This document shows positions 7,939 to 32,457 of a stretch of 64,000 nucleotides of DNA, one piece after another. Under the pieces are notes generated by a model, which saw nothing but the letters and a program-made list of their open reading frames with translations, searched no databases and had not been told where the DNA came from. Positions within the stretch are counted from its first letter, which is position 1. Every line of letters starts with the position of its first letter. The DNA comes from a bacterium (GTDB lineage Bacteria; Myxococcota_A; UBA9160; SZUA-336). The stretch lies in the NCBI GenBank assembly GCA_024226335.1, contig JAAELY010000529.1, positions 1 through 64,000 of the forward strand, read 5' to 3'. The translations under genes were made by a program, and so were the position numbers.

Positions 7939-8079
7939 ACCCGAAAAGGGGCGTAACGGCCCGGAATACCGCCTTTGGGCGGGCTCGTGCCCAGTGTCTG
8001 ATCAGCGACTGCACAAGCCGTGACCTGCTCGCACCCGCTCAAGTTGCCGCCATTTTTCAGCCGATTATCAGGCGGAACC

Positions 8080-9507
8080 ATGTTGGGAAGACACTCGCTA
8101 CTGGCGCTGGTCCTCGTTCTCCTGGTCGGGCCGACTCCCGCCCCGGCGGAGGTGTACACCTGGGTCGACGAACAGGGGAAGGTGCACTTCTCGGATACTC
8201 CGCGCGGAGGCGCGACACGCGTTGTACCGCACACGGAGAAACCGGCCGCTTCGCTCGAACGCGACGCACGAGTCCCGTCGAAAGCGATCCCTTACAGGGG
8301 CCAACTCCCGTCCCTGCGACTGGCGGTTGCGGACGTCGAAGTCGATCTGCCTGCCCGGGGACGGACACGCCTGCCCGTGGGAAGACAGTACCGCGGCTAC
8401 TACTGCAATAGTGGCGCCGAAGATCTGCTCGTGAACCTCGAAAGGAAGCTGAAGGGTTCGACGCTCCTGCCTCGGGATTTTCATCGTCGGCTCGCAGAAC
8501 TGGCCTACCAGCCCCCGGAGTTCGCCTCGACCGGGCGCAAGAAAGTGACGATCGCCGATCTACAAGCCGTTCCCACGGTGACTCGACTCTCGCTTCGATC
8601 GTGTATGGGCCGGGGTCGCAGGAACGGCCAGTCCCTTCCCAACAAGAATCTCGTCGAAGTCCGTATTCACTGGCGGGTTTTCGACCGCCTGAGTCAACAG
8701 ACGGTCTTTGAAGGCACGACTGAAGCTCGCTTCGATCGCTGGAACCAGGAGTACCTTCCCGAGGAAAAGGACAAGGGCATCGTCACGGCGACGCGTCACG
8801 CCTTGCTGGCCGCCGCCGAGAAACTCCTGGCCGATCCCGAGTTCGTCGCCGTGCTTTCTCCAGATGGAAGCCTTCCCGCACAGGAGGAATCGACGCCCGC
8901 CGCGCTGACGGAGGTGACGCCGGATTTCCAGAATCTGCTACCGCAGGTACGCAGCGCCACCCCGATGATTCGCACCGTGCGCAGAAACGGCCACGGTGTC
9001 CTGATCTCTGACGAAGGTCACGTCTTGACCAACTACCGAGTGGTTGCAGACGGTCGCGAGGTCACCCGTGATTCGGTCATGGTCGTTTTCGAGTCCGAAT
9101 CGATTCCGGGTCGGGTCGTGCGTTCGGACAAGCCTCACCGTGTCGCGCTGATCCTGCTCGAACGAATACCCGGAATTCGCCCGGTCCCCATTGCAAGCAG
9201 CGGTGTCCGCATCAGCGAACCCGTATTCGTATTGGGCGGCCCGCTCGAAGACTCGCTCGAACACACGCTCAGCGAGGGTGTCATCACGACCGTGCGAAAC
9301 CTGCGCGGCAGCGAGAGGCGCTACTACCACACGAACGCGCCGGTCGATCGTGACAATCCGACCGGCCCCGTACTGAACCAGCGCGGCGAACTCGTCGCAC
9401 TCGCTACCGGACTCGGTTTCAGCCGCACACCGGGCGCCAACTATCTGATCCCGATCGACGACGCTCTGGAGGCGCTGGGTGTTTCCCGTCAGCAGAAGTC
9501 GGACTGA
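8080..9507 (+). CDS. DUF4124 protein with inactive trypsin-like domain
   Basis: 475 residues. ATG 8080 gives a clean signal peptide (LLALVLVLLVGPTPAPA) directly followed by a DUF4124 module, VYTWVDEQGKVHFSDTP, as in many envelope proteins. The central 80-300 region is unassigned. Residues 305-470 have the strand order of an HtrA/trypsin-like protease (GVLISDEGHVLTNYRVV ... VALILLE ... GPVLNQRGELVAL) but all three catalytic positions are changed: His is R320, Asp is R354 and Ser is P427 (N-P-T-G-P in place of N-S-G-G-P). It is therefore probably a periplasmic binding or scaffold pseudoprotease. It is divergent from amt, with a hairpin 28 bp downstream. Confidence 0.8.
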   Translation: MLGRHSLLALVLVLLVGPTPAPAEVYTWVDEQGKVHFSDTPRGGATRVVPHTEKPAASLERDARVPSKAIPYRGQLPSLRLAVADVEVDLPARGRTRLPVGRQYRGYYCNSGAEDLLVNLERKLKGSTLLPRDFHRRLAELAYQPPEFASTGRKKVTIADLQAVPTVTRLSLRSCMGRGRRNGQSLPNKNLVEVRIHWRVFDRLSQQTVFEGTTEARFDRWNQEYLPEEKDKGIVTATRHALLAAAEKLLADPEFVAVLSPDGSLPAQEESTPAALTEVTPDFQNLLPQVRSATPMIRTVRRNGHGVLISDEGHVLTNYRVVADGREVTRDSVMVVFESESIPGRVVRSDKPHRVALILLERIPGIRPVPIASSGVRISEPVFVLGGPLEDSLEHTLSEGVITTVRNLRGSERRYYHTNAPVDRDNPTGPVLNQRGELVALATGLGFSRTPGANYLIPIDDALEALGVSRQQKSD

Positions 9508-13253: not shown

Positions 13254-14748
13254 AACCGATCGCTTCGGCGAGGTGCTCGGTGGCGATTTCCGGGCTCCCG
13301 TCCAGGTCGGCGATCGTGCGCGCAACCCGCAGGACGCGCACGTAGGCGCGCATCGACAGTCCCAGCGAACGCACGGAACGCTCGAGTAGCGACGAGCCTT
13401 TGGCCGACACCGGGCAGTGTGAGGCCAGTTCTGCCGAGGGCAGCTGGGCGTTCAGCTCGAATTCTTGCCCGCGGTAGCGCTGGCTCTGCCGGGCGCGGGC
13501 GGCGAGCACGCGTTCGCGCACGACCTGGCTCGTCTCCCCGCGGGCCGTCTGATCGCTCATGTGTTTCCACTCCACCGGCGCGACGGGTACGTGCAGGTCG
13601 ATGCGATCCAGTAGCGGACCCGAGAGTCTGGCGCGGTAGCGCCCGATCTCGGGATCGCCACAACTGCACTCGCGCCGCGCGTCGCCCCGGTAGCCGCACG
13701 GGCAGGGATTCATGGCCGCGATCAGCTGGAAGTGTGCGGGCAGGCACTCGATCGCGTGCGCGCGTCCGATGCGGATCTCGTGTTCTTCGAGCGGCTGGCG
13801 AAGTGCTTCGAGTACGTTTCGGCGAAACTCGGGCAATTCGTCCAGGAACAACACGCCGCGATGGGCCAGCGAGATCTCGCCGGGTCGAAGCGGCCGTCCG
13901 CCACCGGCCATGCCCGCATCCGATGTCGTGTGATGAGGAGCGCGAAACGGCGGCGTGCTGAGCAGGCCGGGGCGCGCAAGCGTTCCGGCGACGCTGTGGA
14001 TGCGCGTGGCTTCGAGCGCATCGCGGTATTCGAGCGGCGGAAGCAACCCAGGCAGACGCTTCGCGAGCAGGGTTTTCCCGCTGCCCGGTGGGCCGATGAA
14101 GAGCAGGTTATGTCCTCCGGCCGCCGCCACTTCGAGTGCGCGACGTCCGCTCTCCTGTCCGCGTACATCGGACAGGTCGAGCGCTGTTCCGGGCGTCGCG
14201 TTCGTCGCATCGGGTGCGAGATCAGCCAGGGTGTCGAGCGCAGTTTCGCCGCGCAGGAAGCGGATCACCTGAATCAGATCGTTCGCGCCGAACGCCCGAA
14301 CGCGCGGGTAAAGAGCCGCTTCGGTCAGGTTGCCCAGCGCCACGACGCTGCGTTCGAGTCCGTCGGCCGCCGCGAGCAGGGCGAGCGTTCCGCGCACCGG
14401 ATGCAACGCCCCGTCGAGTCCGAGTTCCCCGACAAAGAGTGTGCTCGCCAGTTCTTCCTCTGGAATCTCGACGCGCGTCGCGGCGATGCCCACTGCCAGA
14501 GCCAGGTCGAGCCCGGTTCCGGTCTTGGGAATCTCGGCCGGGGCCAGGTTCACCGTGACGCGCCCGGGTGGAAACTCGAGTCCGCTCTGGCGAAACGCAG
14601 CGCGCACGCGATCGCGGCTCTCCCGTACGACGCGATCTCCCTGGCCGACGATCTGGAAGGAAGGCAGGCCGCGTCCCGCGTCGACCTCCACCGAAACGCG
14701 CACACCGCCCAGACCTCGTAAGCTCGCACCCCAGACGCGGATCAACAT
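13204..14748 (-). CDS. comM: ComM/YifB Mg-chelatase-like AAA+ helicase
   Basis: 514 residues from ATG 14748 (GGAGT upstream). It has the three-part ComM architecture: an N-terminal ChlI/Lon-like domain (MLIRVWGASLRGLGGVRVSV; NLAPAEIPKTG), a Mg-chelatase AAA+ core with Walker A GPPGSGKT and Walker B GVLFLDELPEF plus the family motif FRAPHHTTSDAGM, and a C-terminal domain ending EHLAEAIGYRQLD. ComM is a hexameric helicase that extends branch migration during natural transformation. The gene looks intact although a transposase remnant abuts its 3' end. It is divergent from the TMTC-like gene. Confidence 0.92.
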   Translation of the reverse strand: MLIRVWGASLRGLGGVRVSVEVDAGRGLPSFQIVGQGDRVVRESRDRVRAAFRQSGLEFPPGRVTVNLAPAEIPKTGTGLDLALAVGIAATRVEIPEEELASTLFVGELGLDGALHPVRGTLALLAAADGLERSVVALGNLTEAALYPRVRAFGANDLIQVIRFLRGETALDTLADLAPDATNATPGTALDLSDVRGQESGRRALEVAAAGGHNLLFIGPPGSGKTLLAKRLPGLLPPLEYRDALEATRIHSVAGTLARPGLLSTPPFRAPHHTTSDAGMAGGGRPLRPGEISLAHRGVLFLDELPEFRRNVLEALRQPLEEHEIRIGRAHAIECLPAHFQLIAAMNPCPCGYRGDARRECSCGDPEIGRYRARLSGPLLDRIDLHVPVAPVEWKHMSDQTARGETSQVVRERVLAARARQSQRYRGQEFELNAQLPSAELASHCPVSAKGSSLLERSVRSLGLSMRAYVRVLRVARTIADLDGSPEIATEHLAEAIGYRQLDASDERRSDFRD

Positions 14749-16815: not shown

Positions 16816-17790
16816 TTGGCGGCGAAACGAAGCAAGCGGGTGTTCGCCTGGCTGGTCGCACTCTCTCTGGTAGAGGGGTGTGGCGCGAGCGAGGTCGATC
16901 CATCTGAAATTCCGACGACTCGGGCCTTCGATTCCGAGCGCGCCTTCGCCGACCTGAAGGCGCTCGTGAACATCGGCCCACGTCACAGTGGCTCAGAAGG
17001 GGCGGAGCGGGCCCGCGCCCTGATCGCCAGCAGCCTGCGCCAGGCCGGCTGGCGGGTCGAGGAGCAAGGCTTCTCCGCCGGGCTTCCGGGTCGAGCGCCG
17101 ATCCAGATGAAGAACATCGTCGGAACTCGCGAAGGCACACGCGATCGCCACATCTGGATCATCACCCACTACGACACCAAGGACATTCCGGGCATGCGCT
17201 TCGTGGGTGCGAACGACGGAGGCTCGGGCGTGGCGCTGCTGCTGGAGTTTGCTCGGGTCTTCAGCGCGATACGGCTGGAGTACGGCGTTTCGCTGGTCTT
17301 CTTCGATGGTGAAGAGGCGCTGGGCCGGTCAATCAACCAGAACGACGGACTCTACGGCAGCCGCTGGCTGGCTCGGGAAATGGAGCAGAAAAATCAGATC
17401 GCCTCGATCGCCGGGCTGATCCTGGTCGACATGGTGGCCGACAAGCAACTCAATCTGGCAGTGGACATGAGTTCTTCGCCTCGTCTGCGCCGCATCATGG
17501 TGCAGGCCGCGCGCAAGATTGGTGATCCAGAGCTCATAGATCCCGCGCAAACGCTCGCATTGATCGATGATCACACGCCTTTTCAGGAGCGCGGGGTCTC
17601 CAACTCATTGGGGATCATCGATTTCGAGTTCGGGGCGGGTCACTCTCCAGGGCCGCTCTGGCACACTCGAGGCGACGATCTGTCCGCGGTTTCGGCAGAC
17701 AGTTTGAATAGGGTCGGAAGACTTCTGGTCGAACTCTTTCGCGGGATAGAGCGGGATCTACAGTCCAAAGAACGTGCAAACGCGCCTTGA
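16816..17790 (+). CDS. M28-family lipoprotein, glutaminyl-cyclase-like
   Basis: 324 residues from TTG 16816, chosen because GGAGG lies 9 nt upstream and the product then starts with a textbook lipoprotein signal (AAKRSKRVFAWLVALSL, lipobox LVEGC); GTG 16771 is an alternative. The zinc ligands and catalytic acids of clan MH are visible: THYDT, GANDGGSG, FFDGEEA, LVDMVADK and WHTRGDD. HYDTK...FVGANDG and DGLYGSRWLA are closer to glutaminyl-peptide cyclotransferases than to aminopeptidases. It is the first gene of the plus-strand run that leads into the OmpA/VWA/ExbBD genes and could act on their N termini; that link is inference. Confidence 0.8.
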   Translation: MAAKRSKRVFAWLVALSLVEGCGASEVDPSEIPTTRAFDSERAFADLKALVNIGPRHSGSEGAERARALIASSLRQAGWRVEEQGFSAGLPGRAPIQMKNIVGTREGTRDRHIWIITHYDTKDIPGMRFVGANDGGSGVALLLEFARVFSAIRLEYGVSLVFFDGEEALGRSINQNDGLYGSRWLAREMEQKNQIASIAGLILVDMVADKQLNLAVDMSSSPRLRRIMVQAARKIGDPELIDPAQTLALIDDHTPFQERGVSNSLGIIDFEFGAGHSPGPLWHTRGDDLSAVSADSLNRVGRLLVELFRGIERDLQSKERANAP

Positions 17791-17888
17791 GGACCCTACT
17801 TTCAGCGACCCGCTGGCGAAACGGATGCTGGCGAGGATGCTGGCCAAGAGCCACCACGAGCTACCAAGAGAAGGTAAGGGGAACTTCG

Positions 17889-18548
17889 ATGCATATTCGA
17901 TCTGCACTGGTCTTGAGTCTGCTGGCCTGTGTTTCAATGGGTTGCGAGACGGCCGGGTCGGTTCTCGATACCAAGGCGAAGCGGGGTGCGGTACTGGGAA
18001 CTCTGGCGGGTGCGGCCGCGGGTGCCGCCATTGGTGGCAAGGACCACAGGGCCGGAGGGGCGTTGATTGGTGCAGCGGCCGGTGCGATCTCCGGCGGGCT
18101 GGTCGGAAAGTATCTGGATCAGCAGGCCGCCGATCTCGATGCAATCCCGGGTGCGGACGTCGAGAAGCGCGACGATTCGATTCTCGTGAACTTCCAGGGC
18201 GGGCTGTTGTTCGACAGCGGTTCGTCGAATCTGCAAGCCGGTGGCTACGATCGACTGCGCTCGATGGCGCGTACGCTCAACAATTACCCAAAGAGTCGCG
18301 TCATCGTGAAGGGCCACACCGACTCCGCCGGGACCGACGATTTCAACCAGAAACTCTCGGAAAAGCGCGCAGATCGCGTGCGCAACTTCCTGGTCTCTGA
18401 AGGCGTGTCTTCTGGACGCATCCAATCATTGGGTTTTGGTGAGTCGCTACCGATGTCCACGAACGCGACCGCCGAAGGGCGTGCGCAGAATCGTCGCGTC
18501 GAGGTCGAGATCCGGCCGGACGCGGAAGTCATGCGGAGTACGCAGTAA
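17889..18548 (+). CDS. OmpA-family (Pal-like) lipoprotein with glycine zipper
   Basis: 219 residues from ATG 17889. The lipobox VSMGC gives lipidated C19. Residues 40-85 form a glycine-zipper segment (GAVLGTLAGAAAGAAIGG, GGALIGAAAGAISGGLVGKY) that may insert in the outer membrane. The C-terminal OmpA_C domain has the peptidoglycan-binding pattern: VKGHTDSAGTDDFNQKLSEK, a GFGESLP turn and GRAQNRRVEVEI. It is the peptidoglycan anchor of the locus, taking the role Pal has in the Tol system. It is 98 bp after the M28 gene and 61 bp before the VWA gene. Confidence 0.9.
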   Translation: MHIRSALVLSLLACVSMGCETAGSVLDTKAKRGAVLGTLAGAAAGAAIGGKDHRAGGALIGAAAGAISGGLVGKYLDQQAADLDAIPGADVEKRDDSILVNFQGGLLFDSGSSNLQAGGYDRLRSMARTLNNYPKSRVIVKGHTDSAGTDDFNQKLSEKRADRVRNFLVSEGVSSGRIQSLGFGESLPMSTNATAEGRAQNRRVEVEIRPDAEVMRSTQ

Positions 18549-18582: not shown

Positions 18583-18609
18583 CGCCTCTAGCGCGAAGGG
18601 GCGTTGGGT

Positions 18610-19896
18610 ATGCGTACGAAGATTACACTGACCAGTTTGCTTTTCGCCCTGACGATTGTCGGGTGGACAGGCCCCACGCTCGGTGCAGGGGACGAGAATC
18701 TGGTGCGCGTGGTCGTCGAATCCCCGCGCCCGGGAGAGGTCGTGAAGTCCCGGACCGATATGGCTCCCCTGAACGGGATTGCCACGGCCGGAGAGCGCCC
18801 CAGCAATTTTGACGTGATGCTCGTGATCGACGTATCCGGTTCGACCAAATACCCCAGCGGGATCGACATCGATGGCGATGGCGAGATTGGCGAGACCAAG
18901 CGCGCGCTGGTGCGCGCACTTCCGGACACTGAGAATACCGATCCCGAAGATTCGATCCTCGCCGCCGAGGTCACCGCCGGGATGAGTTTGCTCGAGGGGC
19001 TCAATCCGGAGCGCGTCCGCGTGGGGATCGTCTCGTTTTCCGGCGAGATCGACCCGATCACACACAGGCGTCGCTCTGTCGATCAAAAGGACGCCCTTCT
19101 GGAGCAGCCGCTTACGGACGACTACGCGCGGCTGAATCAGGCGCTCGAAGCTGTGTTGTTGCGCGGTCCCCACGGGGGCACGAATATGGAGGCCGGTGTG
19201 AAACTGGCCCTGCGCGAATTGGCTGGCCTGTCCGGAGCGCAATCGCAGCCCCGCCCGCGAGCCAAGCGGGTAATCCTGTTCCTGACTGATGGCAAGCCAT
19301 CGCTGCCCTTTGGTCTGGCCAATCTGGAAGATCCCGAAGACACTGAAGCGGTCATCGCAGCCGCGCGGCTGGCGAAGGCGGCCGGCGTGACGATGAACGT
19401 CTACGGAATGGGTCCGCCAGCAATCGACTATCCGATTGCGGCGACCGAGATGGCTCGCGTCACCGGTGGGCTCTACACCCCGGTGCGCCGGCCGGGCGAT
19501 ATCGTGTCGCTGCTCACGGGCGTCTCCTTCGCCAATGTGGAAGCCGTCGTAGCGGTGAACCTGACGCTTCGGGAATCCTCGGGTCCCGACGACATCTGGT
19601 TGGCGCCGGACGGGTCTTTCCGTGGGTTTGTACCGGTTCGACTGGGCAAGAACCGCATCCGTGTTTCAGCGCTGGCGTCAGACGGTACGCGCGGATCGAC
19701 AGAGTTGGACATAGTTTTCAAGCATCAGGGCCTTACTGATGCCGAACGGCGTGCGGAACTCGAACGAATCCGCGAACGTAACCGGGAAATCCAGTTGCGA
19801 CTCGAACGCGAGCGGCAAGATACCTTCCGGAAACAGGAGCGTGAGCGCGCGCTGGAGATCGAAGTCGAAGACGACGACGAGGAGAGCCAACCTTGA
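18610..19896 (+). CDS. Secreted von Willebrand factor A protein with DxDxDG loop
   Basis: 428 residues from ATG 18610. A signal peptide (TKITLTSLLFALTIVGW...) is followed by a VWA domain (about 66-300) with an intact MIDAS: D74-V-S-G-S78, GGTNM and FLTDGKPS. Directly after the MIDAS strand is an inserted DIDGDGEIGE loop (from D86), the same calcium-loop style as the repeats of the neighbouring giant protein. After a beta region comes a highly charged Arg/Glu coiled-coil tail (about 375-428) ending in an acidic cluster. VWA proteins bind metal-dependently to protein ligands; here the likely site is periplasm or outer surface. Its stop overlaps the exbB start (TTGA), so the two are translationally coupled. 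Confidence 0.88.
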   Translation: MRTKITLTSLLFALTIVGWTGPTLGAGDENLVRVVVESPRPGEVVKSRTDMAPLNGIATAGERPSNFDVMLVIDVSGSTKYPSGIDIDGDGEIGETKRALVRALPDTENTDPEDSILAAEVTAGMSLLEGLNPERVRVGIVSFSGEIDPITHRRRSVDQKDALLEQPLTDDYARLNQALEAVLLRGPHGGTNMEAGVKLALRELAGLSGAQSQPRPRAKRVILFLTDGKPSLPFGLANLEDPEDTEAVIAAARLAKAAGVTMNVYGMGPPAIDYPIAATEMARVTGGLYTPVRRPGDIVSLLTGVSFANVEAVVAVNLTLRESSGPDDIWLAPDGSFRGFVPVRLGKNRIRVSALASDGTRGSTELDIVFKHQGLTDAERRAELERIRERNREIQLRLERERQDTFRKQERERALEIEVEDDDEESQP

Positions 19897-20741
19897 TCAA
19901 GTGGATCTCGGGGGCGCTGTTGGCAGTGTCCCTCATGACGTTCGCTGTCCCCGCCTACGCTCAGGAGGCCGGGAGCGCGACGGAGTCTGCCACGGAATCC
20001 GCGCCCGCGAGCCCGAGCGCTGTCGTGGTGGCTGCCCAGCGGGCTAGTTCGAGAGGTGCCGAAGAGGCCATCGACAAGGCGGCCGCGGCTCGCACGCTCA
20101 GGGACTACTACGACATGGGCGGCTGGATCATGCACTTCCTGGTGGCCCTCTCGATCATCAGCGGAGCGGTCATCCTCGAGCGGCTCTGGGGTCTCAGGCG
20201 AGGGTCCGTCATTCCCCGTCGTTTCCTGCAGAAGCTGCGCGATCACTCGCATCGCCGCGAAATGAAGCAGGTGCTCGAACTCTGTGCTTCTTCGGACAAC
20301 GCCATTGCACGGGTGCTTCGCTCCGGACTGCTGCACTTCGACCAGGGTCTGGCGAACATGGAAGACGCGGTCGAGACGTCCGGTCAGCACGAGGCGACCG
20401 TACTGCGTCGCAACCTTCCCCTGCTGGCGGCCCTGGGGAATATGGCCACGATGATGGGCTTGCTCGGAACGGTGCTCGGCATGATCGAGGCCTTCGAACT
20501 GATTGCCAAGACCGGAACGGGTGATGCGCGAGTCGTCGCCTCGGGAATCTTCCAGGCGCTGATTACCACCGCCGCTGGGCTGATGGTGGGTCTGTTCGCG
20601 ATCGGCTTTCACTCCTACTTGCGGCGCAAGGTAGAGGTCCTCGAAATCGATCTCGAGGAGAAGAGCTTTCGCATGCTCGAAGATCTCTGGGTCGGTCGTG
20701 AGCAAGGGCCGCGAAGCGACACGCCACCCGCGAAGGCCTGA
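19893..20741 (+). CDS. exbB: ExbB/TolQ/MotA-family proton channel subunit
   Basis: 282 residues. An N-terminal signal-like segment (MIKWISGALLAVSLMTFAVPAYA) and an Ala/Ser-rich periplasmic stretch precede three helices: TM1 about 76-98, TM2 about 175-200 (LAALGNMATMMGLLGTVLG) and TM3 about 217-241 (GIFQALITTAAGLMVGL). The TM2/TM3 motifs are those of the proton-conducting pentamer; the position held by a glutamate in E. coli ExbB TM3 appears as Q221. The signal-peptide-bearing layout is typical of ExbB rather than TolQ. It overlaps the VWA gene by 4 bp and is 2 bp from exbD. Confidence 0.92.
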   Translation: MIKWISGALLAVSLMTFAVPAYAQEAGSATESATESAPASPSAVVVAAQRASSRGAEEAIDKAAAARTLRDYYDMGGWIMHFLVALSIISGAVILERLWGLRRGSVIPRRFLQKLRDHSHRREMKQVLELCASSDNAIARVLRSGLLHFDQGLANMEDAVETSGQHEATVLRRNLPLLAALGNMATMMGLLGTVLGMIEAFELIAKTGTGDARVVASGIFQALITTAAGLMVGLFAIGFHSYLRRKVEVLEIDLEEKSFRMLEDLWVGREQGPRSDTPPAKA

Positions 20742-20743
20742 GC

Positions 20744-21145
20744 ATGGCGCGTCGCACCTCACAGGAGGACGAAGCCAGCCTCACCATGACGCCCTTGATC
20801 GACGTGGTGTTGTTGCTGCTGATCTTCTTCGTGGTCACGACCGTGTTCGTCGATCGCGAGATCGAGCTGCAACTGCCCGATTCGCAGTCTTCGAAGGTTC
20901 CCGATGAGAAGAAGAAGTTCACCGTCGAACTGGGCCGCGACGGCAGACTTGCGCTCAATGGCGAGACCATGACCGTTTTGAGGTTTGATCAGATGATCGA
21001 GGTCGAGGCCTCTGCGGACAATATCCGGTCTGTCGAGATCCGAGCTGACAAGATGACGGTCCACGGTCGCGTAGTCGAGGTGCTCGGCATCGTGAAGAAG
21101 CACGGCGTCGACAACGTGGGGATCGCGGTCAAACAGGCGACCTAG
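20744..21145 (+). CDS. exbD: ExbD/TolR-family protein
   Basis: 133 residues. A short cytoplasmic N terminus is followed by a single helix with the essential aspartate D20 (MTPLIDVVLLLLIFFVVTTV) and a periplasmic domain ending GVDNVGIAVK, the canonical ExbD/TolR layout. Together with ExbB it should use the proton gradient to drive a periplasmic partner. It ends only 6 bp from the convergent repeat-lipoprotein gene, so the two transcription units collide with no room for a terminator. Confidence 0.93.
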   Translation: MARRTSQEDEASLTMTPLIDVVLLLLIFFVVTTVFVDREIELQLPDSQSSKVPDEKKKFTVELGRDGRLALNGETMTVLRFDQMIEVEASADNIRSVEIRADKMTVHGRVVEVLGIVKKHGVDNVGIAVKQAT

Positions 21146-21151
21146 CCCGGA

Positions 21152-22540
21152 CTACTCAACCAGATCGGGATCGTCGATGTCTTTTCGCACCAGCTTGCCC
21201 TTCTTGTAGTGCGAGGTGACGTCGACGCGCCCATCGTGGTTCATGTCCTCTTCCTTGCGTGCGAGGACGATCTTGGCCGCATCTCGGCCTTCGTAGTGTT
21301 CCCAGATGTCGGTCTTGCCGTCTCCATTGGTATCGCGTTCGTTGCGAACCGGAATTCCGTCGTCCCCGAAGAAGGTGCTGGAGTCCATCTGGCCGTTGTG
21401 GTTAGAGTCTTCCAGTTCGACGACACGGCGCTTGCCCTCGTAGTTGACGCGGCGGTCGACTCTCCCATCGCCGTTGGTATCGTGCTCTTCGTAGGTGAGC
21501 GTGCCGTCCTCGTAGACGTAGAAGCCATCGCGCTTGCCGTCGTAATCACGGTCCACTTCGACCCGAGTGCCTTTGCCGTTCTGGTAGACGATCCAGCGAT
21601 CCGGAAGCCCGTCGCCGTTTGAGTCTTCCTGACGCGCCTTCACCTGGCCATCGGATTGATAGGACGTATGAGCATCGAGGATGCCGTCGTAGTCGGTGTC
21701 CTCGGCGCGGGTGAGAATGGTTCCGTCTTTCGCGTCGATCACGATTTCGAGTTCGGGCCGGCCGTCGCGATCCGCATCGAGTGTCTTGATGAGCCGCTCT
21801 TGCCGGCCTTCCTTGCGAACTGATTTGTCGAAGATCGAATCCGGAATCTTGCGCTCACAAGGCGGTTCCGGAGAAGCCATCGTGTCGGTGGAAACTCCGG
21901 TGGAGTCGCATTCATCAACCTGATCGCGGACCGTGTTTACTTCTTCCTGCTTCGAGATCGCCGCCAGCAATTGCTCCTGACGCCTCAGCTCAGCTTCAAT
22001 TTCAGATTCCAGCGCTTCCTGGCGCTCGAGTTCTTCTTCGATCTCGCGCTCCATCGCCTGGTCGGCGTTTTCGTTGCGCCGCCTCCCGGTGGGGCCCGGG
22101 TTGCCGCGACCCGAATCGAAGGGCACGTCGCCGGTCACGAAGCCGTAGACTCCAAACAGCGCCGCCCCGATCGCCGCGCCGTAAACGCTGCCGATCTGGC
22201 CCCCGACTACCGTGCCGATGATCATGGCCTCGACGCCCGCTTCTGCGCGGCGTCTGACCTGGACGCCCGGACCGCGCTGCGATTGTCTGTCGCCAGTCGC
22301 CGATTCCTGGCCAGCGTCGACATCGTGGGTTTCATCGCTGGCTTCGGCAGTAGTGACGGCGACCGCTGCATCTGGAGTCGGTTCTTGCGCATCCGGTGCC
22401 GGTGCCTCGGCGCTCGGTTCGGAATGGACGGGTCCGCTCACGGGCCGCCGTGCGGTGCATGCAACGCTGGTCGACACAGCGGCAATCAGCAAGATCGCCA
22501 GCGCGCGACTCGACGGCGATGCGGATCGAGATGGATTCAT
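21152..22540 (-). CDS. Lipoprotein with glycine zipper, coiled coil and DxDxDG repeats
   Basis: 462 residues from ATG 22540 (GGGAGA upstream). Order: lipoprotein signal (lipobox TSVAC, C28), a Pro/Ala/Glu linker, a glycine-zipper hydrophobic segment (IIGTVVGGQIGSVYGAAIGA), a Glu/Arg/Gln coiled coil about 190-230, then eight repeats of about 24 residues (255-462; for example DTNGDGRVDRRVNYEGKRRV), each with an EF-loop-like D-x-N/D-x-D-G-x-x-D and a short beta pair. The repeats are of the same type as in the giant protein upstream, suggesting these are partners or paralogues. Outer-membrane anchoring is inferred. No known function. Confidence 0.8.
   Translation of the reverse strand: MNPSRSASPSSRALAILLIAAVSTSVACTARRPVSGPVHSEPSAEAPAPDAQEPTPDAAVAVTTAEASDETHDVDAGQESATGDRQSQRGPGVQVRRRAEAGVEAMIIGTVVGGQIGSVYGAAIGAALFGVYGFVTGDVPFDSGRGNPGPTGRRRNENADQAMEREIEEELERQEALESEIEAELRRQEQLLAAISKQEEVNTVRDQVDECDSTGVSTDTMASPEPPCERKIPDSIFDKSVRKEGRQERLIKTLDADRDGRPELEIVIDAKDGTILTRAEDTDYDGILDAHTSYQSDGQVKARQEDSNGDGLPDRWIVYQNGKGTRVEVDRDYDGKRDGFYVYEDGTLTYEEHDTNGDGRVDRRVNYEGKRRVVELEDSNHNGQMDSSTFFGDDGIPVRNERDTNGDGKTDIWEHYEGRDAAKIVLARKEEDMNHDGRVDVTSHYKKGKLVRKDIDDPDLVE
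21155..21778 (-). repeat. Eight DxDxDG coding repeats of the lipoprotein
   Basis: The C-terminal 208 codons are eight degenerate units of about 24 residues. Each carries D-x-[DN]-x-[DN]-G-x-x-D followed by an aromatic-rich strand and a Gly-Lys turn. Similarity is at protein level; the DNA copies have diverged, so this is not a young minisatellite. Confidence 0.8.
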
Positions 22541-22631: not shown

Positions 22632-25600
22632 TCACAGGTTCTTCCAGAAATTGCTGAACGCACCGCATTTGATGCGTGCGAAACCATCTTTCGAAGGCGG
22701 GCTGCGATCCCCGTTCAGTTCGATGGCCGTTTCCGTACTCAGATCGAATCGCGCATCGAGAGACCCATCGAAGTCCGAGTCTTCATCCTGGGTTCGGGCG
22801 GTTCCGTTCACGTAACTAACCCACACATCGGGCTTGTGATCGGCATTGGTGTCGGCGTCGAATCGAGTCTGCACACCTTCACTGAATACCTGTCGGCGAT
22901 CTGCGTAGCCGTCCTTCGTCGTGTCTTCGAGGCTGATCTGTGCAATGCCCGAGACGAAGCTCGTGCTCGTGCGGGGTGTGCACCGGAAGATCGGGTTGCC
23001 GTCTGTTTCGAAGCGAGTCAGGCGGTCGGGGCGTTTGTTGCAATTGGTGTCTTCTTCCTGCACCAGGATTTCACCGGAATCGCCAAAGTGGAAGACCATG
23101 TTCGGCGTTTTGCAGCGTCCGCGTGCCTCGGCCTGAATCACCTTGCGCTCACCTTCGTAGAATTCCCAGACATCGACGATCTTGTTTGCATTCGTGTCGA
23201 CTTCGCGGCGCGTAACTTCGGTGCCCTCGAGAAAACTCCAGGTGTCGAACTTGCAGTCTGAATCGGAGTCCACAATGTCCTGCTTGAGAGCGCCTTTCGA
23301 GTCGAAAACCTGTCGGTGGTCAAAGCAGCCGTTGCCGTTCGAGTCCTCTACCACGTCGGTCAGCACTCCGGCTGCGAAACGCGTGACTCGGTTCGGCTTG
23401 CCGTCACCTTCTGGATCCTCGATCTGCTCGGAGGGGCGGCCTTTGCCGTCGAACTTGACGATCAGGTCGACTTTCTCGTCGTGGTCGGTGTCTTCGCGCT
23501 TGCGCGTCACGCTTCCGTTCGCAGCCAGATCGAGCCACTGGTCCACTTTGCCATCGCCGTTCGTGTCGAGTTCCTGTCCTGTCTCCGTGCCTCCAGACAT
23601 CAGGACTCGAGCTTCGAAGCTGCCGTCGAAATCCGCGTCCTTCTCCACGCGGTAGGGTTCGGACTCACCGGGTTTGAAGTGCGACACGATATCGATCTTC
23701 TCATCGCCGTTCGTGTCGTTCTCGATGCGAGTGCGTTTTCCGGCCAGGAAGAAGGTCGAGGTCTCGAAGCGTCCATCGCTATCGAGATCGGCCTTTTGAC
23801 TGGCGACCAGGTCGTTCTCGAAGATTGAGATCGCGTCGACTGTGCCGTCGTGATTCGTATCTTCTTCCTGGCGTTGACGCTTCCCGCCCGCCATCAAGAG
23901 CATGGTGTCGAAGACGCCGCTGAAGTTCGTGTCGGTCTCGATGCGTTTCGCCTCGCCGCCTTTGTAGTGCGCAAGCATGTCGTTCTTGCCGTCGAAGTCC
24001 CGGTCCTCGAGTTGTTGCGTCTGCACGCCGGCCTCATACTTCTTGACCACGTCCGCTGTGCCGTCGGAATTCGTATCGAGTTTTTCCTCGCGGGGCTTCC
24101 CGCCGGCGTCAAAAACCGACCACTGATCCGTCTTGCCATCCCCTTTGGTGTCGCGCTCCTGACGGACGAGCTTCGCGCCTTCGAAAAAGCTGATCGTCTC
24201 GGGATGGCCATCCTCGTCTTCGTCGCGCTCTTCCTTGACGCGAATCTCACCGGTCGCGTCGTACTCGACCCGGCCCTGTACAAGTCCGTCTCCGTCGGGA
24301 TCGAGCTCGACGACGCTGCGCTTTCCGTTCAAGTACGTGGTCGTAGCCTCGAAGACGCCGTTGAAGTCATCGTCACTGCGATCGCTGACGATCTCGCCCT
24401 TGTCGTTGTACTTGGCTGTGTAATCCGTCTTGCCGTCGTGATTGCGGTCTTCAGTCACGCCTGTGGCGACTTCACCCGCTAGCGTAGCCACCGAATCGGG
24501 TTTGCCGTCGAAGTCAGTGTCCCTTTCCAGTGACGTGCGTTTTCCGTCCTCGAAGCTGGTCCAGGAGTCGACGCGACCATCGGAGTTCGTGTCCTCCAGA
24601 ACACGCGTCGGTCGACCTTCTGGGTCAAGTGTCGCGTAGGTGTCGGGTTTGCCGTCACCCGTGGTGTCTCTTTCCTGTTTCTCCAGCACGCCCTTGTGGT
24701 AGAAGTTCCAGAGTTCGACGCGTCCGTCGAAATCGGCATCGCTTTCCTGCTGGCTCGTAACTCCATCCTTCAGTACTTCGACGAAGTCGACGTTGCCATC
24801 GGCGTTCCGATCCTGCTCCCTGCGCGCGGGTTTGCCGTCCTTCATGCGCAGCCTCAGATCGAATCGGGTATCGCCGGTCGTGTCTTCGCGCTGCTCTAGC
24901 AGGGTTTCTCCGTCGAAGTCGTACTGCGCGTCGACCTTTCCGTTGAAGTCGCGATCCTCTTCCTGGCTCACCCGGACACCTTTCAGGTATCCGATCCAGG
25001 TATCTACTGCGCCGTCCTTGTTCGTGTCGAGCTCGTGCTTCTTGATCGCTCCGTCGTCGAAGGTTCGAATACTCTCGACCTTTCCATCGCCGTCCATGTC
25101 TCGTGTCTCGCGCGCGATGATGTCGTTCTCGTAGAAACGCTCGGTATCGACATTGCCGTCGGCGTTCCCATCGACTTCTTCGCGAATGCGGACTTCGTTC
25201 GCGTCGTAGTGCACGATGATCTCGGTCTTGCCGTCGCCGTCGGCGTCTCGCTCCTGACGCAATCGTTTTCCCATATTGAAGAACAGGGTCGTTTCACGGC
25301 GGCCGTCGTGATCGGTGTCGATTTCCTCGCGCTCGATCCGCTCGTCCTTGAATCGGGAAATGCGGTCGAATTTCCCGTCGGCGTTGCTGTCGGTTTCCGT
25401 TCTCACCTTCACGGCGGCCTCGTAGACGATGCGCGTGTCGATGCGTCCGTTGCGACTCGTATCGAGTTCCTCGAGTTCCTTCTTCTGGTCAGCGCCGATC
25501 GTTGCGCGGCTCTCGACTCGCCCGTCCTCGTCCTCGTCGATCAGGATCTGATGAAGCCTGTCGTCGACGTATAAACGGGTCTCGTTGGGCTTGCCGTTCC

Positions 25601-26030
25601 CGTCGGGATCTCTTTCGAGCTTGACCCGCCGACCCGATTTAAAGAACAGCACCGTGTCCTGCTGGCGGTCGCCGCTCGTATCTTCTCGCTGAACGCTCGG
25701 CTTTCCGTTCTCGTCGAGCTCGATCCAGAGATCGATCTTTCGGTTGAAATCGCGATCTTCCTCCTGGCGCACGAGTTTCTTGTTCTCGAAGAACTGCCAG
25801 AGGTCGATCTCGTGGTCGAAGTTCGTGTCCTTCTCGATGCGCACGACCGCTCCGTCGACGAGATGTTCCCACTGGTCGACGTACTTGTCCTTGTTCGTGT
25901 CGCGTTCGATCCGCATGAGCAACTCGTTGTCATCGTAGAGATGCGAGATGGGACGTGCGTCCTGCGCTGCGCTGATTCCGGCGTATACGAGCGCCGCTCC
26001 CACGAAGACGAGGAATCGAAACGAGTTCAT
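22632..26030 (-). CDS. Giant secreted protein of ~42 DxDxDG calcium-loop repeats
   Basis: 1132 residues. A signal peptide (FRFLVFVGAALVYAGISA) is followed from residue 44 almost to the end by about 42 tandem units of about 24 residues. Each has an EF-loop-like D-x-[DN]-x-[DN]-G-x-x-D, a W/F-containing strand, a turn (DGK, ENK, NGK) and a charged strand (RxExD). There is no catalytic domain, lipobox or LPxTG. Cysteines are confined to the last ~200 residues (NGCFD, SDCKFD, GRCKTP, DTNCNK, FRCTP, IKCGAF), suggesting a disulfide-locked C-terminal cap. The likely fold is a calcium-stabilised beta solenoid or fibre in the periplasm or on the surface. It is 21 bp downstream of the TonB-like gene and 91 bp upstream of the lipoprotein gene, in one operon. 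Confidence 0.85.
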   Translation of the reverse strand: MNSFRFLVFVGAALVYAGISAAQDARPISHLYDDNELLMRIERDTNKDKYVDQWEHLVDGAVVRIEKDTNFDHEIDLWQFFENKKLVRQEEDRDFNRKIDLWIELDENGKPSVQREDTSGDRQQDTVLFFKSGRRVKLERDPDGNGKPNETRLYVDDRLHQILIDEDEDGRVESRATIGADQKKELEELDTSRNGRIDTRIVYEAAVKVRTETDSNADGKFDRISRFKDERIEREEIDTDHDGRRETTLFFNMGKRLRQERDADGDGKTEIIVHYDANEVRIREEVDGNADGNVDTERFYENDIIARETRDMDGDGKVESIRTFDDGAIKKHELDTNKDGAVDTWIGYLKGVRVSQEEDRDFNGKVDAQYDFDGETLLEQREDTTGDTRFDLRLRMKDGKPARREQDRNADGNVDFVEVLKDGVTSQQESDADFDGRVELWNFYHKGVLEKQERDTTGDGKPDTYATLDPEGRPTRVLEDTNSDGRVDSWTSFEDGKRTSLERDTDFDGKPDSVATLAGEVATGVTEDRNHDGKTDYTAKYNDKGEIVSDRSDDDFNGVFEATTTYLNGKRSVVELDPDGDGLVQGRVEYDATGEIRVKEERDEDEDGHPETISFFEGAKLVRQERDTKGDGKTDQWSVFDAGGKPREEKLDTNSDGTADVVKKYEAGVQTQQLEDRDFDGKNDMLAHYKGGEAKRIETDTNFSGVFDTMLLMAGGKRQRQEEDTNHDGTVDAISIFENDLVASQKADLDSDGRFETSTFFLAGKRTRIENDTNGDEKIDIVSHFKPGESEPYRVEKDADFDGSFEARVLMSGGTETGQELDTNGDGKVDQWLDLAANGSVTRKREDTDHDEKVDLIVKFDGKGRPSEQIEDPEGDGKPNRVTRFAAGVLTDVVEDSNGNGCFDHRQVFDSKGALKQDIVDSDSDCKFDTWSFLEGTEVTRREVDTNANKIVDVWEFYEGERKVIQAEARGRCKTPNMVFHFGDSGEILVQEEDTNCNKRPDRLTRFETDGNPIFRCTPRTSTSFVSGIAQISLEDTTKDGYADRRQVFSEGVQTRFDADTNADHKPDVWVSYVNGTARTQDEDSDFDGSLDARFDLSTETAIELNGDRSPPSKDGFARIKCGAFSNFWKNL
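22710..25901 (-). repeat. Tandem coding repeats, about 42 units of ~72 bp
   Basis: The units average 24 codons (range about 23-26) and share a D-x-[DN]-x-[DN]-G-x-x-D core. At DNA level they recur as GTCG/GACG-rich segments but with heavy third-position drift. Two units near the C-terminal end (around residues 940-1010) have lost the acidic loop, which is where the cysteines occur. Confidence 0.85.
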
Positions 26031-26051: not shown

Positions 26052-27071
26052 TTACTTGGAAGTGAAGTTGGCGGAGATGTTCTTGTTGATGATGTAGTGG
26101 ATCGACTTGGGGGGAGGAGGGAAGGGACTGGCTCGGCGGAAGGCCGCGAGGCAGGTCTCTCCTAGAACGTCATTGCTGGCGGAAGAGACCGAAACGCTAT
26201 GCGCGGAACCGCCGCGGTCGATGCGGAAACGCAGCTTTACCCTGCCGCCTGTCGAATCCTCCCAGCGGGCGTAGACGCGGCGTTCGATCTCCTTGAGGTA
26301 CTGCACGCAGATCGGGTCATTCCTGCAGTCCTTCTCTTCACCGGAGAGCACACCGCGATCGCCGTCTCCCTTCAGGAAGCGGTCCGACGTGCCCGACTCG
26401 ATATCCGCGACTTCGGCGCCTTCGACATCACCGGCAACGGCGTTGTTGGAGATCACGCCGCGGGTCAATGTGGGCGCCGTCACGCTCGCAGCCTTGGCGG
26501 TGACGGTCGGACTCGCCGCTTTGAGCCTGCGCGGGCCGGCCGTGGGTTTGGCGGCCTGGATCTGGGTGATCGATTTCGGCTGCGATATTTGCACCGGTTG
26601 CGGGACGGCCTCGCGCTCGGAGAACACGCTCACGTTCTTGGTAACGACCTGCTTGTGCTCGATCTGCTTGGGCGCTTCGGTCAGTTTTATGGGTTCAACT
26701 TCGACCCGCTTGACCTGATCGAGCACGGGCACCGGTTTTACTTTGGTGATTTCTCTTTGGACGAGCTGCTTGTGCAATTGCACGGACGCGTCGAGTACGC
26801 GCTGTTGGAGCACCTTCCGGCGCAACTTTGGAGGCTCGGGTTTCTTCTCCTCGAGCATCTTCACGACGACCGTCTCTTCCTTCTCGATCACTACGCCGAC
26901 GATCATGTCCCAGAAAAGCAGCAGGAGGATCCCGTGGATCAGTAGCGAGATCAGCATCAAGGTACGACGGGCCGTCGTACCCTTCTCCCGCGCGAGCGGG
27001 TCGTAGCGGGGGAGCGTCGCGGCGAACTCCGCCGTGATCTCCGAACCGTGGATCGCACCTTGATCGACCAT
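26052..27071 (-). CDS. TonB/TolA-like energy transducer
   Basis: 339 residues from ATG 27071. A 36-residue cytoplasmic tail precedes a single helix with the TonB S-x3-H motif (ISLLIHGILLLLFW; S42, H46) that contacts ExbB/ExbD. Residues 65-250 are a Lys/Pro/Val/Gln-rich periplasmic spacer. The C-terminal domain has the TonB pattern: CVQYLKEIERRVYARW, GRVKLRFRIDRGGSAHSVSV and FRRASPFPPPPKS. It is the likely mechanical link between the ExbBD motor and an outer partner. It heads the minus operon with the two repeat proteins; no TonB-dependent receptor is encoded in the window. Confidence 0.88.
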   Translation of the reverse strand: MVDQGAIHGSEITAEFAATLPRYDPLAREKGTTARRTLMLISLLIHGILLLLFWDMIVGVVIEKEETVVVKMLEEKKPEPPKLRRKVLQQRVLDASVQLHKQLVQREITKVKPVPVLDQVKRVEVEPIKLTEAPKQIEHKQVVTKNVSVFSEREAVPQPVQISQPKSITQIQAAKPTAGPRRLKAASPTVTAKAASVTAPTLTRGVISNNAVAGDVEGAEVADIESGTSDRFLKGDGDRGVLSGEEKDCRNDPICVQYLKEIERRVYARWEDSTGGRVKLRFRIDRGGSAHSVSVSSASNDVLGETCLAAFRRASPFPPPPKSIHYIINKNISANFTSK

Positions 27072-30181: not shown

Positions 30182-31219
30182 TTGTCCACGGTTTCTGAAC
30201 GGTTTTCCATCCTGCGAGAAGAGTTGCGCTTCCTCACACCGCGCAAGCTGTACAACCGCGCGATGGAAACGATCGGGCCCAAGCTCAAACTGACCCGGCT
30301 TCCATACGGCCCGACCAAGATCACGGTCGAGTCGGGAAACGTGTGCAATCTGCGCTGTCCGCTTTGTCCCACGGGCCAGGGTGATCGCAATACGGCCCGG
30401 GGCATGATGCCCTACGAGACTTTCGAGAAGCTGCTCGACCAGGCGGGGAAGGATCTGATCACGGTTCGGCTCTACAACTGGGGCGAGCCGTTGCTCAACA
30501 AAGACCTGATCCGCATGTGCGAACTCGCGTATGCCCGGCGCGTGTCGGTGAAGATCTCGTCCCACCTGAACAACCTGACCCCCGAACTGGCCGAGAGCCT
30601 GCTACGGGCAAAGGTGAAGAAGATCTACATCTCCGCCGACGGTGCGACCCCCGAGAGCTACGCCATTTACCGAAGGGGTGGCGACTTCGAAACCGTGATG
30701 AACAACATCAAGATGCTCATCGCCATGAAGAAGCGGATGAAGGCGCACTTCACGCGCGTCATCTGGCTTTTTCACGTATTCAGTCACAACGAGCACGAAG
30801 TCGGGACCGCCCGCAAGCTCGCTGAGGATCTGGGAATCAAGTTGCAGCTCAATGTCGCGCGTACCGACATGGGCAAGGAGATCTTCGAGACCGCCGAACA
30901 GGCGCTGGAGCGAGACGGCCACTGGTTGCCGACAGATGACGAGTTCTGTGCCTACGATCGCGACGAAAAGCAGGCGCAACGTGAGGTCATGTGCACGCTG
31001 CCCTGGAAGGACTCAGCCGTGAATTGGGACGGTAAGGTCCTGGCGTGCTGCAGTGTGTTCAATGAAGAGCACGCGTTTGGTGACATACACGAGGCGTCTT
31101 TTCGCGAAGTCTGGAACGGCCAGGCCTACGTAGAGGCACGCCGCGAAATCGTCGGTCAGTCACCTACGCAGGACACAATCTGCAAGACCTGCAAACACAA
31201 CGGCTATCTGTTCGCGTAG
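30182..31219 (+). CDS. Radical SAM/SPASM-domain enzyme
   Basis: 345 residues from TTG 30182 (GGGGAGA upstream). The radical SAM 4Fe-4S motif is C55-x3-C59-x2-C62 in NVCNLRCPLCPTG. The C-terminal SPASM-like region has Cys in CTLPWKDSAVNWDGKVLACC and a final CKTCKHNG, so auxiliary Fe-S clusters are likely. SPASM enzymes commonly modify peptides or carry out sugar and cofactor chemistry; no precursor peptide gene is obvious nearby. It is convergent with the kinase gene, 14 bp apart. Confidence 0.85.
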   Translation: MSTVSERFSILREELRFLTPRKLYNRAMETIGPKLKLTRLPYGPTKITVESGNVCNLRCPLCPTGQGDRNTARGMMPYETFEKLLDQAGKDLITVRLYNWGEPLLNKDLIRMCELAYARRVSVKISSHLNNLTPELAESLLRAKVKKIYISADGATPESYAIYRRGGDFETVMNNIKMLIAMKKRMKAHFTRVIWLFHVFSHNEHEVGTARKLAEDLGIKLQLNVARTDMGKEIFETAEQALERDGHWLPTDDEFCAYDRDEKQAQREVMCTLPWKDSAVNWDGKVLACCSVFNEEHAFGDIHEASFREVWNGQAYVEARREIVGQSPTQDTICKTCKHNGYLFA

Positions 31220-31233
31220 TCGTCCGGCTCGTA

Positions 31234-32457
31234 TCAGGGACTGAGTTCGAACGCGAGAGGGTTTCGCAGCAGAGACCCGTCCGCTCCATCGATCCATTCG
31301 GTCTTGTCGTTCAGCCGTCCGTAGAACTCCAGTTCGCGACGCGCACGCCTCCGCTGCTGTGAACGCTGCGTCAGGCCGAGCGACGACGCCTGGCCCGGGT
31401 CCAGTAGCGAGACGCCCGATTTGTCCAGGCGCACGGGTCGAAGCGCCGGCAGTTCGAGTCGTTCGAGCTGATGGGCTTTGATCCACACCTCTTGCGCCTG
31501 TTCCTCCGGAAGATCGAAATGGATGCACTTTGCGTCGCGTCGCGTCCGGACGACCCAGGCCTCGCCCACGTGTTCGACATGACGCCCGAGCTTGAAGGCG
31601 GCGTTGGCGGCACGCCGGGCGTCGCGTTGTCGAATCTCGCGGAACGCGGATAGGATGAATTCAATGGCCTCGTGAACCTCCTGGCGATCTGCATTCGCTC
31701 CCAGGTAGAGGCGCAGGAAGCGCACGCGCTCGCTCGTGCTCAGACACGGTTCGCGCCGGACGAGCTTCGCCAGAAGAGTGAGACCGCGCTCGCGCCGAAG
31801 CGGCTTGCCCACCGAGCAGCGCTCGAAGTCGATGAGCGCGAAGTGTCCATCGGCAAAGACCAGGAAGTTGTTCGTCGAGTAATCGTCCTGATCGATTCCC
31901 GCATCGTGGACCTGTCGTGTGAAGACCGCGAAACTCTCGATCAGGGCGCGTCGACGCTCGGGTGAGAGTTCCGGGTCGCGGATCTCGGCGCGGACGTCGC
32001 GCGCCGGAAGCTCCTGGATGACCGAGAAGCTGCGCGAAAGGATGCCGAATCGGCGCTCTTCTCCGACCGCGAGCGGGACGGCTGCTTCGAAGCCCCGTTC
32101 CACCACCTGGCGGGCAATCTTCGACTCGCGTCGCGCCTTCGACGGCCGAAACGCGTAGCGCCAGCGCTGGCCGCGCGGCAGGCTGAAGACCTTCACGAAC
32201 AGGCCGGGCTCCTCGCCAGCCGCTGCCAGGCGATACAGGCGTTTGCGCCCACCGGCTTCGCGCGCGACACTGCCCGGGCCGCTCAACACGGCATCGGGAT
32301 CGGAAAGCAGGGTGCGCAGTCGCGGAGACGGCTCCCCTTCCACCCACCAGCGCAAGCGTGTCCCTTTCAAGGGAATGGTACCGGGGCGCGTTTCAACGCC
32401 GGCACCGACGGAACGAGTCGCAGTTGAGTCTCGACCACGGTCTGCGAAGGCTAGCAA
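31234..32457 (-). CDS. WaaP/InaA-like lipopolysaccharide kinase-family protein
   Basis: 407 residues. An N-terminal Gly-rich region and KARRESKIARQVVERG precede the kinase catalytic loop VHDAGIDQDDYSTNNFLV (H-D/D/N pattern) and the metal-binding ALIDFERC (DFE in place of DFG), as in the WaaP/Kdo-kinase family that phosphorylates LPS core heptose. The C-terminal 150 residues are Arg-rich and less conserved. The ATG at 32457 lies only 2 bp from the divergent folC ATG, so either the true start is further in (for example TTG at 32370) or promoters lie inside the opposing gene. Confidence 0.75.
   Translation of the reverse strand: MLAFADRGRDSTATRSVGAGVETRPGTIPLKGTRLRWWVEGEPSPRLRTLLSDPDAVLSGPGSVAREAGGRKRLYRLAAAGEEPGLFVKVFSLPRGQRWRYAFRPSKARRESKIARQVVERGFEAAVPLAVGEERRFGILSRSFSVIQELPARDVRAEIRDPELSPERRRALIESFAVFTRQVHDAGIDQDDYSTNNFLVFADGHFALIDFERCSVGKPLRRERGLTLLAKLVRREPCLSTSERVRFLRLYLGANADRQEVHEAIEFILSAFREIRQRDARRAANAAFKLGRHVEHVGEAWVVRTRRDAKCIHFDLPEEQAQEVWIKAHQLERLELPALRPVRLDKSGVSLLDPGQASSLGLTQRSQQRRRARRELEFYGRLNDKTEWIDGADGSLLRNPLAFELSP

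What the first reader, a model, noticed from the sequence alone, without database searches (positions are those of the whole stretch)
22632..26030. Giant protein of about 42 calcium-loop repeats with a cysteine cap
About 42 units of ~24 residues fill residues 44-1107, each with D-x-[DN]-x-[DN]-G-x-x-D plus a short beta pair. Cysteines occur only in the C-terminal ~200 residues, where two loops have degenerated. No enzymatic domain. This suggests a rod-like, calcium-dependent solenoid with a disulfide-locked end, either a spacer, ligand fibre or adhesin stalk.
Basis: partly seen in the sequence, partly recalled or inferred. Interest (0 to 1): 0.7.

Follow-up and report, generated by a model that had tools for sequence, protein, structure and literature searches.

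The report
Calcium-loop ribbon paired with Tol-type motor
An uncultured bacterium exports a very long ribbon-shaped protein, built from 43 calcium-binding hairpins and kept at nearly the same length across its whole class, and its gene travels with the genes of a proton-driven envelope motor, so it is probably a mechanical part of the cell envelope rather than an adhesin.

Summary
ORF 22632-26030 (minus strand, 1132 aa) is a signal peptide plus 43 units of 24-26 residues; 38 units keep all four calcium-ligand positions tested, and all six cysteines lie at residues 902-1122. The interpretation changes in three ways. (1) It is not a solenoid: AlphaFold gives an all-beta chain of hairpins joined by 9-residue calcium loops (pLDDT 86.7 whole; 96.4 for a 12-unit piece), closest in geometry to engineered OspA and MORN ribbons and locally like Rhs/teneurin shells. 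(2) The repeat number is nearly fixed: 32 full-length orthologues are 1012-1149 aa, co-linear unit by unit, with cysteines gained and lost in pairs. (3) It is genetically tied to a second, non-canonical TolQ-TolR-TonB/TolA motor: a TonB-like gene lies directly upstream in every locus with enough sequence, TolQ-TolR sit alongside, and one genus that lost the ribbon also lacks the TonB and that TolQ, while canonical tol-pal is elsewhere in the window's genome. Shorter relatives sit in similar operons in other lineages. Most likely it is a dedicated periplasmic partner of this motor. The biological output and direct contact with the motor are inferred. I found no description of this system in the papers searched.

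The parts
22632..26030 (-). ribbon protein ('ROD'), 1132 aa, 43 calcium-loop hairpins
25965..26030 (-). predicted signal peptide of the ribbon protein (residues 1-22, ...YAGISAA|QD)
   Evidence: sequence inspection; low-confidence N-terminus in the model; hydrophobic N-termini in orthologues
22710..25913 (-). array of 43 units of 24-26 aa (residues 40-1107)
22632..23021 (-). disulphide-stapled C-terminal end (residues 1004-1132): C1017 and C1122 invariant, tail motif C-G-x-F-x-x-F-W type in 32/32 orthologues
26052..27071 (-). TonB/TolA-like transducer directly upstream (339 aa from this ATG; the ORF is open to 27587), TM segment with SxxxH, TonB_C domain; gap to the ribbon gene 21 bases
21152..22540 (-). 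lipoprotein-like gene with 8 units of the same repeat at its C-terminus ('LIPOrep')
20744..21145 (+). TolR/ExbD-like motor subunit with the membrane aspartate (PLIDVVLL)
19893..20741 (+). TolQ/ExbB-like proton channel
18604..19896 (+). secreted von Willebrand A domain protein, accompanies LIPOrep in relatives
17787..18548 (+). YiaD-type glycine-zipper/OmpA lipoprotein; membership of the module not established

Best explanation
The protein is exported to the periplasm and folds, with calcium, into a long single-layer ribbon of 43 antiparallel beta-hairpins whose C-terminal end is locked by disulphides. It is the dedicated periplasmic partner of a second, non-canonical TolQ-TolR-TonB/TolA-like motor. 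Proposed mechanism: TolQ-TolR use the proton gradient to move the TonB-like transducer; its C-terminal domain engages the ribbon, and the ribbon carries or positions that force or contact towards the outer membrane, where the adjacent hairpin-bearing lipoprotein is a candidate docking point in the window's lineage. The nearly fixed length (at most about 41 nm if straight: 43 x 2 strands x 0.48 nm) fits a span or ruler role. SHOWN by computation: repeat and loop chemistry, hairpin model, near-fixed length, paired cysteines, operon linkage, joint absence of ribbon, TonB and module TolQ. INFERRED: periplasmic location, calcium occupancy, direct contact of ribbon and TonB, force transmission, the lipoprotein as outer end.
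For: A TonB-like gene is directly upstream and co-directional in all orthologous loci with enough upstream sequence (about 33, including L061 checked separately), mostly overlapping the ribbon start or within a few bases of it; all complete ones have a TM histidine and most the SxxxH motif. TolQ-TolR are adjacent, divergent or convergent. Genus g26: 6/6 genomes lack the ribbon and this TonB and have only distant TolQ (<=85 bits); all 11 ribbon-bearing genomes tested from the same family have the TonB on the ribbon's contig, and 9 have the module TolQ there at 293-598 bits, the other two having the module at a contig end. The canonical tolQ-R-A-B-pal operon is separate in the same genome. Shorter relatives in other lineages lie in TonB-ribbon-LIPOrep-VWA-TolQ-TolR or ribbon-TolQ-TolR operons (L073, L128, L129, L138, L072). 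Fold. Near-fixed length and co-linearity. Cysteine pairs: Fisher P 1e-4 to 4e-8 (sequences are related, so nominal).
Against: Linkage is not universal: in one Methylomirabilota group (L130-L136) the short relative has no TolQ/TolR/TonB detected within about 5 kb. No complex was modelled; no contact between TonB and ribbon is shown. The nearest named family, Lsa25.6, is described as an adhesin, so surface exposure is possible for some members. A straight 41 nm ribbon is longer than a typical periplasm (general knowledge), so it would have to bend or run obliquely. Whole-chain pTM is only 0.38, so the global shape is not established. TonB/ExbBD genes can lie beside unrelated partners.
Confidence: 0.5

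Rival explanations
1. Surface adhesin stalk or ligand fibre: the ribbon is exported across the outer membrane and holds or is a binding element.
For: Its best family hit is the Leptospira adhesin family Lsa25.6 (E 8e-24); calcium-stabilised repeat rods are common in adhesins (general knowledge).
Against: 84 bits against a cut-off of 150; no head domain, no sorting or anchor motif; near-fixed repeat number and unit-by-unit conservation are unlike adhesin stalks; locked to TonB/TolQ/TolR.
Confidence: 0.15
2. Rhs/YD-type cocoon: the hairpin ribbon spirals into a closed shell that holds a cargo or a folded C-terminal plug.
For: The top 39 solved-structure matches of the whole model are Rhs, teneurin, Tc-type and one related mosquito shell protein (E 4e-20 to 5e-8); a near-fixed unit number fits a closed shell; stapled end.
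Against: TM-scores about 0.1, rmsd about 80 A; the confident 12-unit model fits engineered OspA (TM 0.50) better than any Rhs-type shell listed (TM at most 0.26); no Rhs Pfam match, no Rhs plug motif, no toxin domain.
Confidence: 0.1
3. Periplasmic calcium store or buffer: the protein binds about 38 calcium ions and the motor linkage is regulatory or incidental.
For: 38 complete loops, net charge about -102.
Against: Does not explain near-fixed length, position-specific unit conservation, the stapled C-terminus, or joint absence with TonB and TolQ.
Confidence: 0.1
4. Transport module: the TonB-like protein energises an outer-membrane transporter and the ribbon is a substrate-handling or chaperone component (for example of a glycan or lipid) rather than a force element.
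For: TonB_C domain above its cut-off; SxxxH motor-coupling motif.
Against: No TonB-dependent transporter was recognised among the neighbours tested; strand faces are not strongly amphipathic, so no obvious lipid groove.
Confidence: 0.15

Closest known systems
Tol-Pal system (tolQ-tolR-tolA-tolB-pal)
   Same: TolQ/TolR-type motor, TolA/TonB-type transducer with SxxxH membrane segment, then a secreted all-beta protein and, in the window's type, a lipoprotein: a similar order of roles
   Different: The partner is a 43-hairpin ribbon, not the TolB propeller; a separate canonical tol-pal operon exists in the same genome
ExbB-ExbD-TonB and the vWA force transducers of Williams-Jones et al. 2025 (PMC12204202)
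   Same: Motor genes next to new periplasmic partners; a VWA protein also occurs here
   Different: Here the VWA protein looks secreted (signal-peptide-like N-terminus) and the transducer has a TonB domain; a calcium-hairpin ribbon is not mentioned in the passages found
Lsa25.6 family adhesin of Leptospira (NCBIfam NF050087)
   Same: Same kind of repeat; six stretches of the ribbon match (E 8e-24)
   Different: Family model is 196 positions; the ribbon scores 84 bits against a cut-off of 150; much longer, different gene context
Rhs/YD-repeat shells, teneurins, TcB-TcC
   Same: Local hairpin-ribbon structure
   Different: No sequence match, no fit to the closed shell in the models, no plug motif or toxin
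OspA single-layer sheet and MORN repeats
   Same: Ribbon of short hairpins; engineered OspA TM 0.50 to the 12-unit model; MORN proteins dominate the viral library matches
   Different: No sequence match; calcium loops between hairpins here

Membership tests
Tol/Ton-type energy transduction system | TolQ/ExbB and TolR/ExbD motor subunits encoded alongside | tested here: met
   PF01618 E 2e-28, PF02472 E 5e-28; adjacent in relatives
Tol/Ton-type energy transduction system | Transducer with SxxxH membrane helix and TonB/TolA C-terminal domain | tested here: met
   PF03544 28.2 bits against cut-off 24.6; SxxxH in the window and most orthologues, TM histidine in all complete ones
Tol-Pal proper | TolB propeller and Pal lipoprotein in the same operon | tested here: not met
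   The one TolB match, with tolQ, tolR and a Pal-like gene, is on another contig
Lsa25.6 (NF050087) | Score at or above the curated cut-off of 150 bits | tested here: not met
   84.2 bits
Rhs/YD-repeat proteins | RHS repeat sequence family and core/plug motif | tested here: not met
   No Pfam match at E<=1; no DPxGL-type motif; no Rhs sequence in a profile search of solved structures
Rhs/YD-repeat proteins | Closed spiral beta shell | tested here: inconclusive
   Local match E 4e-20 but TM about 0.1; whole-chain pTM 0.38
MORN repeats | MORN sequence family | tested here: not met
   No Pfam match at E<=1; no MORN-like pattern
EF-hand-like calcium loop (Dx[DN]xDG) | Ligand residues at loop positions 1, 3, 5 and a later carboxylate | tested here: met
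   38/43 units with residues at 1, 3, 5 and 9; profile hits lanmodulin EF loops E 9e-5
EF-hand-like calcium loop (Dx[DN]xDG) | Measured calcium binding | not testable with these tools
   needs purified protein
RTX or sortase-anchored adhesins | GGxGxD nonapeptides or LPXTG anchor | tested here: not met
   patterns absent

The most novel reading that the evidence does not exclude
A third kind of proton-driven envelope machine, beside Tol-Pal and Ton, in which a calcium-hairpin ribbon of nearly fixed length spans the periplasm and acts as the mechanical linker or ruler between a TolQ-TolR-TonB motor and outer-membrane lipoproteins made of the same hairpins.
Probability: 0.25. Interest if true: 0.85.

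Novelty: new variant of a known kind. Interest (0 to 1): 0.62.

Why it matters
If true, an uncultured bacterial class carries a second Tol-like force system whose periplasmic element is a 43-hairpin calcium ribbon of conserved length. That would add a new structural solution for spanning or mechanically coupling the two membranes, give the poorly understood Lsa25.6-type repeat a cellular context outside adhesion, and offer a natural long single-layer beta-ribbon for studying calcium-dependent mechanics.

Tried and rejected
Pfam and solved-structure sequence searches of the single protein found nothing. A raw best-match test of single units is weak (7.4 of 40 units find their own position against 1 by chance), so I used a register-shift test with profiles from the window's family (-0.16 bits per unit in register, -4.4 to -6.0 at every shift). 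Rhs cocoon: rejected as first choice because the confident 12-unit model fits OspA better. Variable repeat number: rejected at the level of families; near-identical strains were not available. Papers: no description found with terms for ExbB/ExbD plus calcium-binding and VWA, or TolA/TonB plus calcium and repeat protein; the most relevant paper does not mention EF-hand. The paper library holds open-licence papers only, so absence there is weak evidence. A sigma-70 promoter scan found none, uninformative for this lineage.

Full report
OBSERVATION. The ORF at 22632-26030 is on the minus strand and encodes 1132 aa. A chained repeat search and a ligand check give 43 units of mostly 24-26 residues between residue 44 and about 1107; the chain score is far outside the shuffled range (1375 against a maximum of 8.6 bits) and the strict loop motif occurs 23 times against 0.11 expected. 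Position 1 is Asp in 42 of 43 units, position 5 Asp/Asn in 41, position 6 Gly in 31, position 9 Asp/Glu in 39; 38 units keep all four ligand positions. The six cysteines are at 902, 926, 973, 997, 1017 and 1122. No Pfam family matches at E<=1; NCBIfam finds the Lsa25.6 repeat below its cut-off (84.2 of 150 bits).

FOLD. With an alignment of 32 sequences AlphaFold2 gives mean pLDDT 86.7 and pTM 0.38: hairpins of 6- and 7-residue strands, mostly with 2-residue turns, joined by 9-residue loops that are the calcium motifs, and one 4-residue helix at the C-terminus. A 12-unit piece (residues 427-723) gives pLDDT 96.4 and pTM 0.82. So the local fold is confident and the overall curvature is not. The best Foldseek matches of the whole model are Rhs, teneurin and Tc shells by local structure, with TM about 0.1; the 12-unit piece fits engineered OspA at TM 0.50 and Rhs-type shells at 0.13-0.26; in the viral library MORN proteins dominate. 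This is a ribbon of hairpins, not a solenoid. A profile search of solved-structure sequences finds only EF-hand loops of lanmodulin and a relative (E about 1e-4). Both strand faces have mixed composition, except position 14, which is aromatic or aliphatic in 91%.

NEAR-FIXED LENGTH. The genome search found matches in 51 of 60 relatives and, at a stricter threshold, in 50 of 284 phylum genomes, every one of them in the window's class. 32 full-length orthologues measure 1012-1149 aa (mean 1089, sd 31). They align unit by unit; two units (at 872 and 945) are absent in all 26 sequences of the other type, and few further unit losses occur. In a register test, profiles of each unit built from the window's family score best at shift 0 and 4-6 bits per unit worse at every shift from -8 to +8. 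MAFFT chose the register, so this is not fully independent, but a free-running repeat array would not give such a contrast.

DISULPHIDES. Cysteine columns come in pairs: 25/49 (10 and 11 of 32), 902/926 (27 and 28; the odd one, L062, has a cysteine at 900 instead), 973/997 (6 and 6), 1082/1094 (9 and 9), 1017/1122 (32 and 32). In L008 of the first alignment both 973 and 997 are lost together. The tail motif with C1122, F1125-type residue and W1129 is in all 32. Pairing is inferred from co-occurrence.

GENE CONTEXT. Directly upstream lies a TonB/TolA-like gene with an SxxxH membrane segment. In relatives the same gene is upstream in every locus with enough sequence, often overlapping the ribbon start (L061 checked). 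TolQ and TolR genes are next to it: divergent in most families, convergent in the window's type; in L036 they lie about 10 kb downstream. In the window's type the set sits between a patatin gene and an M28 peptidase gene together with LIPOrep and VWA; in L083, L085, L086 and L087 LIPOrep and VWA lie together without the ribbon, TonB or TolQR, so the four-gene set appears to move as a block. One member of the window's family (G007, L140) carries the other type of block.

JOINT ABSENCE. Six genomes of genus g26 lack the ribbon. The module's TonB-like gene is absent from all six and present in all 11 tested ribbon-bearing genomes of the same family. The best TolQ matches in g26 are 68-85 bits, against 293-598 bits for the module TolQ in 9 of 11 ribbon genomes; in the other two (G013, G057) the module lies near a contig end. 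These genomes are incomplete (76-95%), but six misses of linked genes argue for real loss. The six share one ancestor, so this is probably one evolutionary event.

WIDER OCCURRENCE. In Methylomirabilota and another deltaproteobacterial MAG, shorter relatives (about 15 units) lie in clusters with TonB, LIPOrep, VWA, TolQ and mostly TolR (L073, L128, L129, L138), and in a Desulfobacterales MAG a 633-aa relative is followed by TolQ and TolR (L072). In seven other Methylomirabilota-class loci (L130-L136) no motor gene was found nearby. The short forms read here lack the stapled tail.

INTERPRETATION. The anatomy - export signal, hairpin ribbon with calcium loops, stapled end, near-fixed length, operon with a proton-driven motor and its transducer, joint absence - is best explained by a periplasmic structural partner of a second Tol-like machine. 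A canonical tol-pal operon is present elsewhere in the same genome, so this is an additional system. The survey of force transducers in PMC12204202 shows that motor-linked new partners are an open class; the passages found there do not mention this protein. What the machine does (outer-membrane stabilisation, division, motility, transport) cannot be told from these data.

LIMITS. No coordinates were available, so the contour length is an estimate from strand number. Organism names come only from MAG record titles (Deltaproteobacteria, Myxococcota). No experiment is available.

Noticed in passing
L080 8346-9623 (own genome G000:C269, about 13345-14622), L081, L082, L084: A third protein, lipoprotein-like, with about 6-7 of the same calcium-hairpin units at its C-terminus, away from the TolQR module, conserved in the family.
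   Followed up: partly
L042 4138-7250, L062 4237-7298, L055 561-3677: In divergent-type loci the TolR end faces an ABC ATPase, an ABC-2 permease and an ABC_transp_aux protein (GldA/GldF/GldG-like set by domain content).
   Followed up: partly
L130-L136: Genomes of the Methylomirabilota class with a short (about 412 aa) relative of near-constant length but no TolQ/TolR/TonB detected within about 5 kb.
   Followed up: partly
window 17787-18548: YiaD-type glycine-zipper OmpA lipoprotein next to the VWA gene; could be a peptidoglycan anchor of the same system.
   Followed up: no
window 8020-9507: Trypsin-like peptidase combined with a DUF4124 domain.
   Followed up: no
window 30182-32457: Radical SAM/SPASM protein convergent with a Kdo/WaaP-type kinase-like gene.
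   Followed up: no
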